Positions 29,311 through 32,729 of a stretch of 64,000 nucleotides of DNA are shown here, piece after piece (the first letter of the stretch is position 1; every line of letters begins with the position of its first letter). Both the position numbers and the translations under genes were made by a program. The stretch spans positions 1,240,001 to 1,304,000 of the forward strand of contig NZ_AUKG01000001.1 in the NCBI RefSeq assembly GCF_000424625.1. The letters run 5' to 3'. The notes under the pieces are model-generated. The model was not told where the DNA came from. It ran no database searches and worked only from the letters and a program-made list of their open reading frames with translations. Source of the DNA: Conexibacter woesei Iso977N. GTDB lineage: Bacteria > Actinomycetota > Thermoleophilia > Solirubrobacterales > Solirubrobacteraceae.

Positions 29311-29736
29311 ATGGCCGCGCCATGCGTCTTCTGCGAGATCATCGAACGGCGGATCCCCGCGTCGATCGTCTACGAGGATGACGACCACGTCGCGTTCCTC
29401 GACGCGCGGCCGCTGTTCGAGGGTCACACGCTGCTGGTCCCGCGCACGCACGTGGTCACGCTGACCGACCTCACGCCGGAGCGCGTCGGCCCGTTCTTCC
29501 TGCAGGCGCAGCGCCTCGCGCGAGCGATCCCCATCGCCATGGACGCCAAGGGCACCTTCGTCGCCATGAACAACATCGTCAGCCAATCCGTCCCGCACCT
29601 GCACTGCCACGTCGTCCCGCGCACCCCCAGGGACGGCCTGCGCGGCTTCTTCTGGCCGCGCACGAAGTACGCCGACGACGCGGCCCGTGATGCCGTCGCC
29701 GCCAAGATCGCCACGACCCTCGACCACACCGACTAG
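29311..29736 (+). CDS. HIT family nucleotide-binding hydrolase
   Basis: 141 residues, normal length. N-terminal CVFCEIIERRIPASIVYEDD with the zinc-type CxxC, HTLLVPRTHV, and the catalytic histidine triad HLHCHVVPR near residue 98-106. HIT proteins of the HINT/Fhit group hydrolyse AMP- or nucleoside-phosphate esters and amidates; the exact substrate is open. ATG 29311 follows TACGCT (29298-29303) by 7 nt, so the message is probably leaderless. The LLM oxidoreductase follows 10 nt downstream with its own TAGCCT box. Confidence 0.93.
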   Translation: MAAPCVFCEIIERRIPASIVYEDDDHVAFLDARPLFEGHTLLVPRTHVVTLTDLTPERVGPFFLQAQRLARAIPIAMDAKGTFVAMNNIVSQSVPHLHCHVVPRTPRDGLRGFFWPRTKYADDAARDAVAAKIATTLDHTD

Positions 29737-29746
29737 CCTCGACACC

Positions 29747-30706
29747 ATGCCCTCCAACACGTTCCGCGCCGGCCTGCAGATCCCGAACTTCAACCTGCCC
29801 GGCACCGAGCCGGGCGACCTCCTGGACACGCTCACCGACATCGCGACGACCGCCGAGGCCTCCGGCTTCGACGCGCTGTACGTGATGGACCACCTCCACC
29901 AGCTCCCGGGCCTCGGCCCGCAGAGCAACTGGATGCTCGAGGGCCCGACGACGCTGAGCGCGCTCGCCGCCCGGACCAAGACCATCCACTTGGGCCTGAT
30001 GGTCGGCGGCATCACCTACCGCAACCCCGCGCTGCACGCCAAGATCACGACGACGATCGACGTCCTCTCCGGCGGCCGCGCGATCATGGGCATCGGCGCC
30101 GCCTGGTTCGAGGACGAGCACAAGGCCTATGACTTCCACTTCGGCACGCTCGGCGAGCGCTTCGAGCGCCTGGAGGACGGCCTGCAGATCATGCGCGCGA
30201 TGTTCACCTCCGGGGAGGAGCGCGCGACGGTCGAGGGCAGGCACCACTCGATCACCGGGGCCTACAACAACCCGAAGGTCCGCCCGGACATCCCGATCCT
30301 GATCGGCGGCTCCGGCGAGAGGAAGACGCTGCGGATGGTCGCGCAGTACGCGCAGGCGTCCAACGTCTTCGGCGACGTCGAGCAGATCAAGCACCTGATG
30401 GGCGTGCTCGACCAGCACTGCGCCGATGTCGGCCGCGACCCGAGCGAGATCGCGCGCACGAAGCTCGCGACGCTCGTGATCGGCGACACGGCCGAGGAGG
30501 CCGACGCGAAGGCCGCGCCGGTCCGCGAGGCGATGGGCGAGCGCGCCGCGGCGGTCGTCCTGTCGGGCGACGCGGACACCCTCGCCGAGCAGCTCGCCGC
30601 CCACCGCGAAGCGGGCCTCACCGGCCTGATCGTCAACATGCCCGAGGCCCACGACCTCGGCCAAGTCAGGGCCGCCGGCGAGATCCTCGCGAAGGCCTTC
30701 GCCTAG
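29747..30706 (+). CDS. LLM-class, probably F420-dependent, oxidoreductase
   Basis: 319 residues of luciferase-like TIM barrel: GLQIPNFNLPGTEPGDLLDT, EASGFDALYVMDHLHQ, LGLMVGGITYRNPALHAKIT, DVLSGGRAIMGIGAAWFEDE, PILIGGSGERKTLRMVAQYA. The sequence pattern is that of actinobacterial LLM enzymes that use F420 or FMN; a cis-Gly-Gly/Ser-type bulge around LMVGGI is typical. No substrate can be assigned. It starts 7 nt after TAGCCT (29734-29739), again a leaderless signature. Its TAG stop is the first base pair set of the long palindromic element (30703-30871). Confidence 0.9.
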   Translation: MPSNTFRAGLQIPNFNLPGTEPGDLLDTLTDIATTAEASGFDALYVMDHLHQLPGLGPQSNWMLEGPTTLSALAARTKTIHLGLMVGGITYRNPALHAKITTTIDVLSGGRAIMGIGAAWFEDEHKAYDFHFGTLGERFERLEDGLQIMRAMFTSGEERATVEGRHHSITGAYNNPKVRPDIPILIGGSGERKTLRMVAQYAQASNVFGDVEQIKHLMGVLDQHCADVGRDPSEIARTKLATLVIGDTAEEADAKAAPVREAMGERAAAVVLSGDADTLAEQLAAHREAGLTGLIVNMPEAHDLGQVRAAGEILAKAFA

Positions 30707-30871
30707 ATGGATGATGCGAAATTCCCGCGGCCGTGCTCGCACGCCCGGCGGCGCTGGATCGCCACGCGATCTCTTACCGATCCAACCAGGATCGGCTGCG
30801 AGATCGCGCGGCGCCCAGCATCCGCCGTGCGCACGACCACGACCACGGTCTATTTCGCATCAACCATCTAG
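30703..30871. repeat. 169-nt imperfect palindrome between convergent genes (MITE-like)
   Basis: Left arm 30703-30783 and right arm 30789-30871 are inverted copies around the loop AACCA. The outer 20 positions match at 19 (CTAGATGG, one mismatch, TGATGCGAAAT). Inside, GTGsTCG, GGCGG, GCTGG, CGCGATCTC and CCGATCC match in the same order. Both genes end exactly in the CTAG at each tip. Other convergent pairs in this window share a single CTAG, so the simplest reading is an insertion of about 161 nt (30707-30867) into such a CTAG with its 4-bp duplication. It could also act as a strong two-way terminator. No coding capacity. Confidence 0.8.
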
Positions 30872-31458
30872 TCGCTCTTCGGGATCCCGCGCATGACGAC
30901 CCGGGCCAGGTAGGCGGCCAGCTGATCCGGCTGCCACTGGCCCGGCTCCTCGAGCTGGACCCGGAAGCCCAGCTCGGCCAAGGCCACCAACATGCGCCCG
31001 AGCAGCGCGGTCTCGCGGTCCGGGAGCTTCGTCCAGGCCGCGAGCACCTCGCCCATCCGCTGCTCCCAGTGCTCGCGGCCGCGCTCGATGCGCGTCTCGC
31101 CATGGCGCTGGAGGTAGATGACGCGGAACGCCTCGGGCGCCTCGACGACCGCGCGCAGCAGCGCGGCGAGGCCGAAGCGCATGAGGTCCTCCTTGTCGCC
31201 GAGCGCGCCGGGGGTCGGGACCGAGTCCTCGACCATGTGCCACAACTTGCGCTCCTCGCGAGCCATCAGCTCGTCGAAGAGGTCCTCCTTGGAGGCGTAG
31301 CACGAGTACAGCACCGGCTTGGAGACCTCGGCGGCGTCGGCGATCGCCTGCATCGAGACCGCCTCGTAGCCGAGCTCGGCGAACAGCGGCAGTGCGGCGT
31401 CCAGGACCAGCGGGCGTCGCAGCTCCGGTCCCAGATGCGCCGCACGTGCGCGCGTCAT
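30868..31458 (-). CDS. TetR-family regulator
   Basis: 196 residues from ATG 31458 with GAAGGA upstream. The N-terminal helix-turn-helix is LVLDAALPLFAELGYEAVSM, then QAIADAAEVSKPVLYSCYAS and KEDLFDELM; the remaining 130 residues are the helical ligand/dimer domain. It starts 11 nt after the acyl-CoA dehydrogenase gene and is clearly co-transcribed with it. TetR proteins in such operons commonly sense an acyl-CoA or the drug-like substrate of their partner and repress the shared promoter; the GAACG/CGTTC palindrome at 32754-32767 is the candidate operator. The stop codon lies inside the palindromic element. Confidence 0.9.
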   Translation of the reverse strand: MTRARAAHLGPELRRPLVLDAALPLFAELGYEAVSMQAIADAAEVSKPVLYSCYASKEDLFDELMAREERKLWHMVEDSVPTPGALGDKEDLMRFGLAALLRAVVEAPEAFRVIYLQRHGETRIERGREHWEQRMGEVLAAWTKLPDRETALLGRMLVALAELGFRVQLEEPGQWQPDQLAAYLARVVMRGIPKSD

Positions 31459-31469
31459 GACGGGTCCTT

Positions 31470-32729
31470 CTAGGAGATCCGCAGGCCGGAGATCGCGCGG
31501 GCGATGACCAGCTGCTGCATCTCGGACGTGCCCTCGAAGATCGTGTAGATCTTGGAGTCGCGGTGCCAGCGCTCGACCGGGAACTCGCGCGTGTAGCCGT
31601 TGCCGCCCATGATCTGGATCGCGCGCTCGGTCGCCCAGACGGCGACCTCGCCGGCCTTCAGCTTCGACATCGAGCCCTCGGCGTTCTCGAACGGGATGCC
31701 GTTGCGGGCCATCCACGACGCGCGCCAGACGAGCAGGCGGGCGGCGTCGATCTCCATCTTCATGTTGGCCAGCGCGAAGGCGATCGACTGGTTCTCGATG
31801 ATCTTCTTGCCGAACTGCTCGCGCTCCTTGGCGTACTGCAGCGAGTACTCGTAGGCGGCGCGGGCGATGCCGAGCGCCTGGGAGCCGACGACCGGGCGCG
31901 TGGCCTCGAAGGTCTGCATCGCGGCCTGCGTCCTGCCCCTCTTGCCCTCGCGGACACGCGCGAGGCGCTCGTCGAGCTTCTCCTTGCCGCCGAGCAGGTT
32001 GGCGCCCGGGATCCGGCAGTCGTCGAGGTGGACGTCGGCGGTGTGCGACGCGCGCAGGCCGTGCTTCCTCACCTTGGCGCCCTGCTCGATGCCCTCGGTC
32101 GCGATCGGGACGATGAACGCCGCGTGGCCGCGGGAGCCGAGCTCCTTGTCGGTCTGGGCGATGACGACGTGGATGTCGGCGATGCCGCCGTTGGTCGCCC
32201 AGGCCTTCTGGCCGTTGAGGACCCAGGTGTCGGACGCCTCGTCGTACTTGGCGGTGGTGCGGATGTTCGAGACGTCGGAGCCGGCGTTGGGCTCCGAGGC
32301 GCAGAACGCCGCGACCTTCACATCATCGGCGGTCCCGTAGCACTGCGGGATCCACTCCATGACCTGCTCCCACGAGCCCTGGCCGGCGATGGCCGCGGCG
32401 GCAAGGCCGGTGCCCATGATCGCCATGCCGATGCCCGCGTCGCCCCAGAACAGCTCCTCCTGGACGATCGGCATCGTCAGGCCGCTGGGGTCGGAGGCGA
32501 ACTGCTGCAGCGACTCGAAGCCGTAGAGGCCGATCTTCGCGGCCTCCTGGATGATCGGCCACGGCGTCTCCTCGCGCTCGTCCCACTCATGAGCGGCGGG
32601 GCGCACGACGTTCTCGGAGAACCCGTGGACCCACTCGCGCATGTCCTTCTGGTCCTGGGTCAGGGCCAGCGTGAACGACGGCTCGGCGGGCGTCTCGGTG
32701 GTCTCGGTGCTCTCGGCGGTGGAAGCCAT
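31470..32729 (-). CDS. Acyl-CoA dehydrogenase
   Basis: 419 residues. FAD-dependent dehydrogenase core: AFCASEPNAGSDVSNIRTTA (flavin/substrate motif), WVLNGQKAWATNGGIADI, GLRASHTADVHLDDCRIPGA, REQFGKKIIENQSIAFALAN and IQIMGGNGYTREFPVERWHR, with catalytic Glu in KIYTIFEGTSEMQQLVIA. It introduces the alpha-beta double bond of acyl-CoA esters and hands electrons to ETF. The N-terminal 20 residues are a Thr/Glu-rich extension. It heads a two-gene operon with a TetR regulator. No CoA ligase or thiolase is nearby, so the chain specificity is open. Confidence 0.95.
   Translation of the reverse strand: MASTAESTETTETPAEPSFTLALTQDQKDMREWVHGFSENVVRPAAHEWDEREETPWPIIQEAAKIGLYGFESLQQFASDPSGLTMPIVQEELFWGDAGIGMAIMGTGLAAAAIAGQGSWEQVMEWIPQCYGTADDVKVAAFCASEPNAGSDVSNIRTTAKYDEASDTWVLNGQKAWATNGGIADIHVVIAQTDKELGSRGHAAFIVPIATEGIEQGAKVRKHGLRASHTADVHLDDCRIPGANLLGGKEKLDERLARVREGKRGRTQAAMQTFEATRPVVGSQALGIARAAYEYSLQYAKEREQFGKKIIENQSIAFALANMKMEIDAARLLVWRASWMARNGIPFENAEGSMSKLKAGEVAVWATERAIQIMGGNGYTREFPVERWHRDSKIYTIFEGTSEMQQLVIARAISGLRIS

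What the first reader, a model, noticed from the sequence alone, without database searches (positions are those of the whole stretch)
30703..30871. 169-nt palindrome that looks like a hairpin MITE inserted into a shared CTAG double stop
Two 81-83-nt arms are inverted copies of each other around a 5-nt loop, the outer 20 positions matching at 19. Both convergent genes end in the CTAG at the two tips. Elsewhere in the window convergent genes share one CTAG, so an ancestral single CTAG duplicated on insertion explains the geometry: element 30707-30867, 4-bp target duplication. CTAG-like targets with 4-bp duplication are known for IS5-group elements. An element that is nearly all hairpin could also be a double-sided terminator or give a structured RNA.
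Basis: partly seen in the sequence, partly recalled or inferred. Interest (0 to 1): 0.7.

Follow-up and report, generated by a model that had tools for sequence, protein, structure and literature searches.

The report
Hairpin transposable element splitting shared stops
A 161-base piece of DNA that folds almost entirely back on itself is a small hitch-hiking mobile element that inserted exactly into a CTAG shared by the stop codons of two facing genes; its kin are scattered through soil and water actinobacteria with the same ends, and full-size elements with those ends carry a transposase of the IS982 family.

Summary
Window 30703-30871 is a 169-nt near-palindrome (MFE -110.7 kcal/mol, z -11.7). 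It is a MITE, 30707-30867, flanked by CTAG on both sides.

Three lines of evidence support this. (1) Copies with different flanks exist in the same genome, in its genus, and across the order and beyond. A pattern for the paired tips hit 76 stretches in 84,980 genomes, all with actinobacterial titles. (2) A same-genus genome carries the same two convergent genes joined by one CTAG. Two further insertions also have single-CTAG empty sites. (3) Full-size (~1.0 kb) insertion sequences with the same 16-nt tips and the same CTAG flanks exist in related genera. Their transposase is IS982 family (above NCBI's cut-off), not IS5.

53 of 63 distinct tip-selected elements fold end to end, and 45 of 67 base pairs show compensatory two-sided changes. 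79% of copies abut a TAG stop, against 34% of background CTAGs.

What maintains the hairpin is not settled. No strand bias was seen, and no IS982 transposase was found in the window genome or in some copy-rich genomes. I rate it a new variant of a known kind.

The parts
30703..30706 (.). left copy of the CTAG target duplication; holds the TAG stop of the left gene
   Evidence: empty site in G001 has a single CTAG at this distance from the left gene
30707..30867 (.). the element (161 bp MITE), near-perfect palindrome with a 5-nt loop at 30784-30788
   Evidence: copies with other flanks
30707..30722 (+). left terminal inverted repeat ATGGATGATGCGAAAT (family consensus ATGRTYGATTCC)
   Evidence: same tips in 76 stretches and in IS982-family elements
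30852..30867 (-). right terminal inverted repeat (reads ATGGTTGATGCGAAAT on the minus strand)
30723..30783 (+). inner 5' arm; internal-loop residues C30773-T30774 invariant in 18 aligned copies
30789..30851 (+). inner 3' arm; C30796-T30797 and C30799-G30800 invariant or at least 90% conserved
30868..30871 (.). right copy of the CTAG target duplication; holds the stop of the right gene (minus strand)
29687..30706 (+). left flanking gene, luciferase-like (LLM-class) monooxygenase; stop codon inside the left CTAG
30868..31470 (-). right flanking gene, TetR-family regulator (start approximate); stop codon inside the right CTAG

Best explanation
It is a non-autonomous transposable element (MITE) 161 bp long that is almost entirely one imperfect hairpin. 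A transposase of an IS982-family insertion sequence with the same ends (ATGRTYGATTCC) recognises the two tips, moves the element, and inserts it at CTAG, duplicating those 4 bases. CTAG is rare in this high-GC genome and often coincides with TAG stop codons. Because the duplication gives each side its own CTAG, insertion there leaves both proteins intact. Here the target was a single CTAG that served as stop for both convergent genes, and the insertion gave each gene its own. Shown: palindrome, copies, CTAG duplication by comparison with empty sites, identical ends on IS982-family elements, maintained pairing. Inferred: that the IS982 enzyme is what moves it, and that survivors at stop codons are those spared by purifying selection. 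Not shown: why the whole interior is kept as a hairpin. My first guess is selection on the element, because only copies that fold or stay harmless keep spreading, possibly helped by arm-to-arm templated correction during replication.
For: Copies: one 90% identical full-length copy and one core copy with different outer arms in the same genome; more in G001, G004, G005, G013, G020, G009 and, in another family, G043. Paired-tip pattern: 76 stretches, all titled as Actinomycetota, 0 in viral contigs. Empty sites: the window locus in G001 reads ..GCACTGAGCTAGTTGTCGCTC.. with one CTAG. Copy L008 of G001 is empty in G000 with one CTAG, and copy L038 of G001 is empty in G000, G005 and G004 with one CTAG each. 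IS: ~1.0 kb elements bounded by CTAGATGGTTGATTCC or CTAGATGATCGATTCC in G009, G011, G028, G033 and G035. Their transposases score 173-174 bits on NF033520 (IS982) against a cut-off of 130, and only 37-51 on the best IS5 model (cut-off 110). In G009 the MITE and the intact IS share the terminal 22 nt exactly and nothing further in. Stop codons: 44 of 56 copies abut a coding-like TAG against 95 of 280 background CTAGs (p about 7e-10). Hairpin: 53 of 63 distinct elements fold end to end, median 74% of bases against 29% when the interior is shuffled; 45 of 67 pairs have two-sided changes, covariation 0.349 against 0.134 shuffled and at most 0.12 slid.
Against: No IS982 or DDE_Tnp_1 transposase was found in the window genome or G001, and no IS982 in G013, G020 or G057, although G057 has many near-identical copies. 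The mobiliser there is missing, lost or lies in unassembled repeats. Published IS982 ends mostly begin with AC and have variable direct repeats (PMC7335449), unlike the ATG ends and fixed CTAG seen here. In the window's empty site the right-hand gene differs by one codon (3 nt), so the comparison is not letter-perfect. Copy L002 has no clean CTAG on either side, and its empty site in G004 is too diverged to show the target.
Confidence: 0.88

Rival explanations
1. A fixed bidirectional transcription terminator between two convergent genes, not a mobile element.
For: It lies exactly between convergent stops and forms a very stable hairpin on either strand. Most copies abut at least one stop codon.
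Against: Copies with different flanks, absence at the same locus in G001, and tips shared with transposase-bearing elements. No T-tract beyond either arm. No preferred strand relative to the adjoining gene, 17 versus 14. It may still terminate transcription as a side effect.
Confidence: 0.05
2. The hairpin is kept only by mutation bias: template switching between the arms copies changes from one arm to the other, with no selection on structure. (This concerns the upkeep of the hairpin, and is compatible with its being a MITE.)
For: Among the closest copies two-sided compensated changes outnumber one-sided ones (window versus L008: 4 compensated, 0 G-U intermediates, 1 one-sided break). Shortened derivatives of 51-68 nt with intact tips suggest replication slippage in the palindrome.
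Against: Some mismatches and internal-loop residues stay conserved while the flanking helices change; pure correction should remove them. Other close pairs (L003-L033, L012-L034) accumulate one-sided breaks.
Confidence: 0.3
3. The element is a REP/REPIN-like palindrome moved by a Y1 (RAYT) tyrosine transposase, not by a DDE enzyme.
For: Single Y1_Tnp genes are present in G000 and G001, and two matches in G005.
Against: Tips duplicate CTAG, which Y1 enzymes do not do (general knowledge). No Y1 gene in the copy-rich G013, G009, G020 or G057. No hairpin tips beside the Y1 genes found. Identical tips bound IS982-family elements.
Confidence: 0.02

Closest known systems
IS982-family MITE of Cardinium cOegib (PMC9769881)
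   Same: Short (about 240 bp) non-autonomous element with the inverted repeats of an IS982-family IS.
   Different: Described as derived from its parental IS; no full-length hairpin is mentioned in the text searched. Here the interior is unrelated to the IS beyond about 20-26 terminal nt and is a conserved hairpin; target is CTAG and hosts are actinobacteria.
IS982 family (PMC7335449)
   Same: About 1 kb IS with a DDE transposase that scores above the NCBI IS982 cut-off.
   Different: Family ends mostly begin with AC and direct repeats vary in length; here ends begin ATG and the repeat is CTAG in nearly all copies.
IS5 (target YTAR, PMC10359306) and IS701 (4-bp duplications, PMC2266710)
   Same: 4-bp duplications; CTAG fits YTAR.
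   Different: Transposases of the tip-bearing IS score far below the IS5 cut-offs; no DDE_5 (IS701-type) gene in most copy-rich genomes.
ERIC / RU-1, RU-2 and other bacterial MITEs (PMC2759123, PMC10969869)
   Same: 100-200 bp palindromic intergenic repeats.
   Different: Different hosts and, here, an identified candidate mobiliser and exact CTAG target. Sequence comparison with ERIC was not run.
REP / REPIN (PMC3733652, PMC3116915)
   Same: Dispersed palindromic repeats outside genes.
   Different: GTAG/CGTC tags and Y1 transposases there; CTAG duplication and DDE-type IS ends here.

Membership tests
MITE (non-autonomous DNA transposon) | no transposase gene, terminal inverted repeats, length well under 1 kb | tested here: met
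   161 bp, tips inverted
MITE (non-autonomous DNA transposon) | multiple copies at unrelated sites | tested here: met
MITE (non-autonomous DNA transposon) | target duplication shown against an empty site | tested here: met
   single CTAG at three empty sites
MITE (non-autonomous DNA transposon) | autonomous partner with the same terminal repeats | tested here: met
   IS982-family elements in G009, G011, G028, G033, G035; 22 identical terminal nt within G009; none in the window's own genome
IS982-mobilised element | transposase of the IS with these tips is IS982 by curated model | tested here: met
   173-174 bits, cut-off 130
IS982-mobilised element | ends begin with 5'-AC | tested here: not met
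   ends begin ATG after CTAG; family description in PMC7335449, where 57 of 69 members begin AC, so it is typical rather than universal
IS982-mobilised element | transposase actually moves the hairpin | not testable with these tools
   needs a transposition assay
IS5 group | IS5-type transposase on the tip-bearing IS | tested here: not met
   best IS5 model 37-51 bits, cut-off 110
intrinsic terminator | G+C hairpin followed by a T run | tested here: not met
   hairpin yes, no T run on either side
Rfam structured RNA | match to a curated family | tested here: not met
   no match at E up to 1

The most novel reading that the evidence does not exclude
One MITE lineage has kept a 160-180 nt imperfect hairpin with specific internal loops across several actinobacterial orders while its stems turned over by compensatory change. 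The fold itself would then be a working part of the element, needed either for transposition (for example presenting both tips as one folded substrate) or to make insertions between genes harmless.
Probability: 0.3. Interest if true: 0.65.

Novelty: new variant of a known kind. Interest (0 to 1): 0.5.

Why it matters
It ties a widespread, apparently undescribed actinobacterial hairpin repeat to a candidate mobiliser and an exact target. It also shows how a mobile element can land between two overlapping stop codons without damaging either gene. Because structure is conserved while sequence is not, it makes testable whether a MITE's secondary structure is itself selected, which is usually assumed not to matter.

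Tried and rejected
Laying the whole genome in the Python box was not available. Plasmid records gave no similar DNA and viral contigs no paired tips. The DDE_5 (IS701) search found only elements with other ends. The Y1 transposase idea was rejected. RNAalifold on the raw alignments recovered only tip and apical helices, so the pairs of the window's own fold were counted instead. The C3 hit is a coding-sequence match with no tips, and several weak hits (for example L014, L053, L054) look like chance. No report of this element was found in the papers searched.

Full report
What is there. Window 30703-30871 reads CTAG, 161 nt, CTAG. The 169 nt fold into one hairpin with 81- and 83-nt arms and a 5-nt loop at -110.7 kcal/mol; 200 dinucleotide shuffles average -58.3 (z -11.7). 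The left gene, a luciferase-like monooxygenase, ends in the TAG of the left CTAG. The right gene, a TetR-family regulator on the minus strand, ends in the right CTAG. No Rfam family matches.

It is repeated. In the window's own genome (G000, 5.7 Mb, 9 contigs) there is a 90% identical full-length copy on contig C4 and a copy on C5 that shares the core but has different, still self-complementary, outer arms. In 61 genomes of the genus, family and order there are further copies, including 13 matches in G013 and, in another family of the order, two in G043. The 15-nt tip is heavily enriched in many relatives (for example 54 sites in G057, 40 in G013, 36 in G009) against 0-2 for the reversed pattern; in G035 most tips are accounted for by IS copies rather than hairpins. 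A pattern that fixes only the two tips and a spacing of 125-155 nt hit 76 stretches in 84,980 species genomes. All are titled as Actinomycetota: Solirubrobacterales/Thermoleophilia, Nocardioides and Propionibacteriaceae, Acidimicrobiales. It hit nothing in 2.9 million viral contigs. From contig lengths, G013 corresponds to the record titled uncultured Solirubrobacteraceae AVDCRST_MAG53, so the window's family (same as G013's) is most likely Solirubrobacteraceae (inference).

Target and duplication. In G001 (same genus) the same two genes are adjacent and joined by one CTAG..GCGACGGCACTGAGCTAGTTGTCGCTCTTGGGG.. The left gene reaches CTAG at the same distance as in the window, and the right gene has one extra codon. 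Two G001 copies were checked the other way. L008 is empty in G000 (..GGCTAGGGT..). L038 is empty in G000 (..GCCTAGTGG..), and single CTAGs also occur there in G005 and G004. In L038 the left CTAG has become CTGA, which still gives the left gene a stop.

Who moves it. Searching DDE_Tnp_1 genes in 15 relatives and scanning their flanks showed elements of about 1.0 kb (one of 1.29 kb) bounded by CTAGATGGTTGATTCC, CTAGATGATCGATTCC or close variants on both sides, in G009, G011, G028, G033 and G035, with CTAG flanks. Intact transposases from G033 and G009 score 173-174 bits on the IS982 model (cut-off 130), and well under the IS5 and IS4 cut-offs. In G009, hairpins and an intact IS share 22 terminal nt exactly; similarity of hairpins to IS copies never extends beyond about 26 nt. 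I therefore infer that IS982-family transposases with these ends mobilise the hairpins. Two cautions apply. Published IS982 ends mostly start with AC and have variable direct repeats (PMC7335449), so this is a deviating branch. And no IS982 transposase was found in G000, G001, G013, G020 or G057, some of which are incomplete metagenome assemblies.

Why stop codons. CTAG is scarce: 30 in the window against 157 expected from base composition. By a coding-contrast heuristic, 44 of 56 element copies adjoin a TAG that ends a coding-like frame (7 on both sides), against 95 of 280 other CTAGs in the same loci (9 on both sides); Fisher p about 7e-10 and 0.008. Since the duplicated CTAG regenerates the stop on each side, such insertions are harmless, while insertions inside genes are purged; this suffices to explain the bias. 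A small set of 13 IS copies shows 5 at stops, too few to interpret.

The hairpin. The tip pattern says nothing about the interior, yet 53 of 63 distinct elements fold end to end, with a median 74% of bases in full-length pairs against 29% when the interior is shuffled. Exceptions are mainly the Acidimicrobiales copies, which have only tips in common, some Propionibacteriaceae copies, and one G009 copy. In a sequence-only alignment of 18 diverse copies, the window's fold keeps 82% of cells paired (28-43% when slid by 1-3 columns), 45 of 67 pairs show two-sided changes, and the covariation score is 0.349 against 0.134 shuffled. Internal-loop residues such as C30773-T30774 and C30799 are invariant while neighbouring stems change. 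So the fold is maintained. Selection on structure and arm-to-arm templated correction both fit. Between the window copy and its closest relative L008, compensated double changes outnumber one-sided ones (4 versus 1), but other close pairs break pairs more often. The hairpin shows no preferred strand relative to the adjoining gene (17 versus 14), which argues against a role confined to one strand of RNA. It lacks the T-tract of a canonical intrinsic terminator.

Verdict. The finding is real and its main reading is right: a hairpin MITE in a shared CTAG double stop. The correction is IS982, not IS5. The addition is that the family spans several actinobacterial groups and that its fold is conserved by compensatory change. 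MITEs of IS982 elements are already known in Cardinium (PMC9769881), so the kind is known and the structural conservation and CTAG specificity are the new variant.

Noticed in passing
L052 (G005:C218), L055 (G020:C85), G020:C556:6979-7034: Mini-hairpins of 51, 68 and 56 nt with the same CTAGATGGTTGAT tips; in L052 both adjoining genes keep their TAG stops. They look like internal deletion derivatives of the full palindrome.
   Followed up: partly
L048 750-900 and L049 830-970 (G013): A second, different long hairpin with a similar apical layout sits directly next to a copy of the element.
   Followed up: no
L087, L092, L131 (Acidimicrobiales MAG-167): AT-richer 180-181 nt element with the same tips but no full-length hairpin; its interior holds a GTCATTCCCACGAAAGTGGGAATC stem-loop. 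A lone half copy lies at L092:2075.
   Followed up: partly
G057 (metagenome genome, about 93% complete): More than 20 near-identical hairpin copies but no IS982 transposase and only one unrelated DDE_Tnp_1 gene: the mobiliser is missing from the assembly.
   Followed up: partly
L177 (G005:C247): In G005 the TetR gene faces the HIT-domain gene instead of the luciferase-like gene, and the two again share one CTAG double stop.
   Followed up: no
window CTAG sites (15016, 25617, 41076, 47105 and others): CTAG occurs 30 times against 157 expected from base composition, and 17 of 28 tested sites coincide with coding-like stop codons.
   Followed up: partly
G000:C2:303556-303885: A single RAYT-like Y1 transposase gene in the window genome, with relatives in G001 and G005, not linked to these hairpins.
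   Followed up: partly
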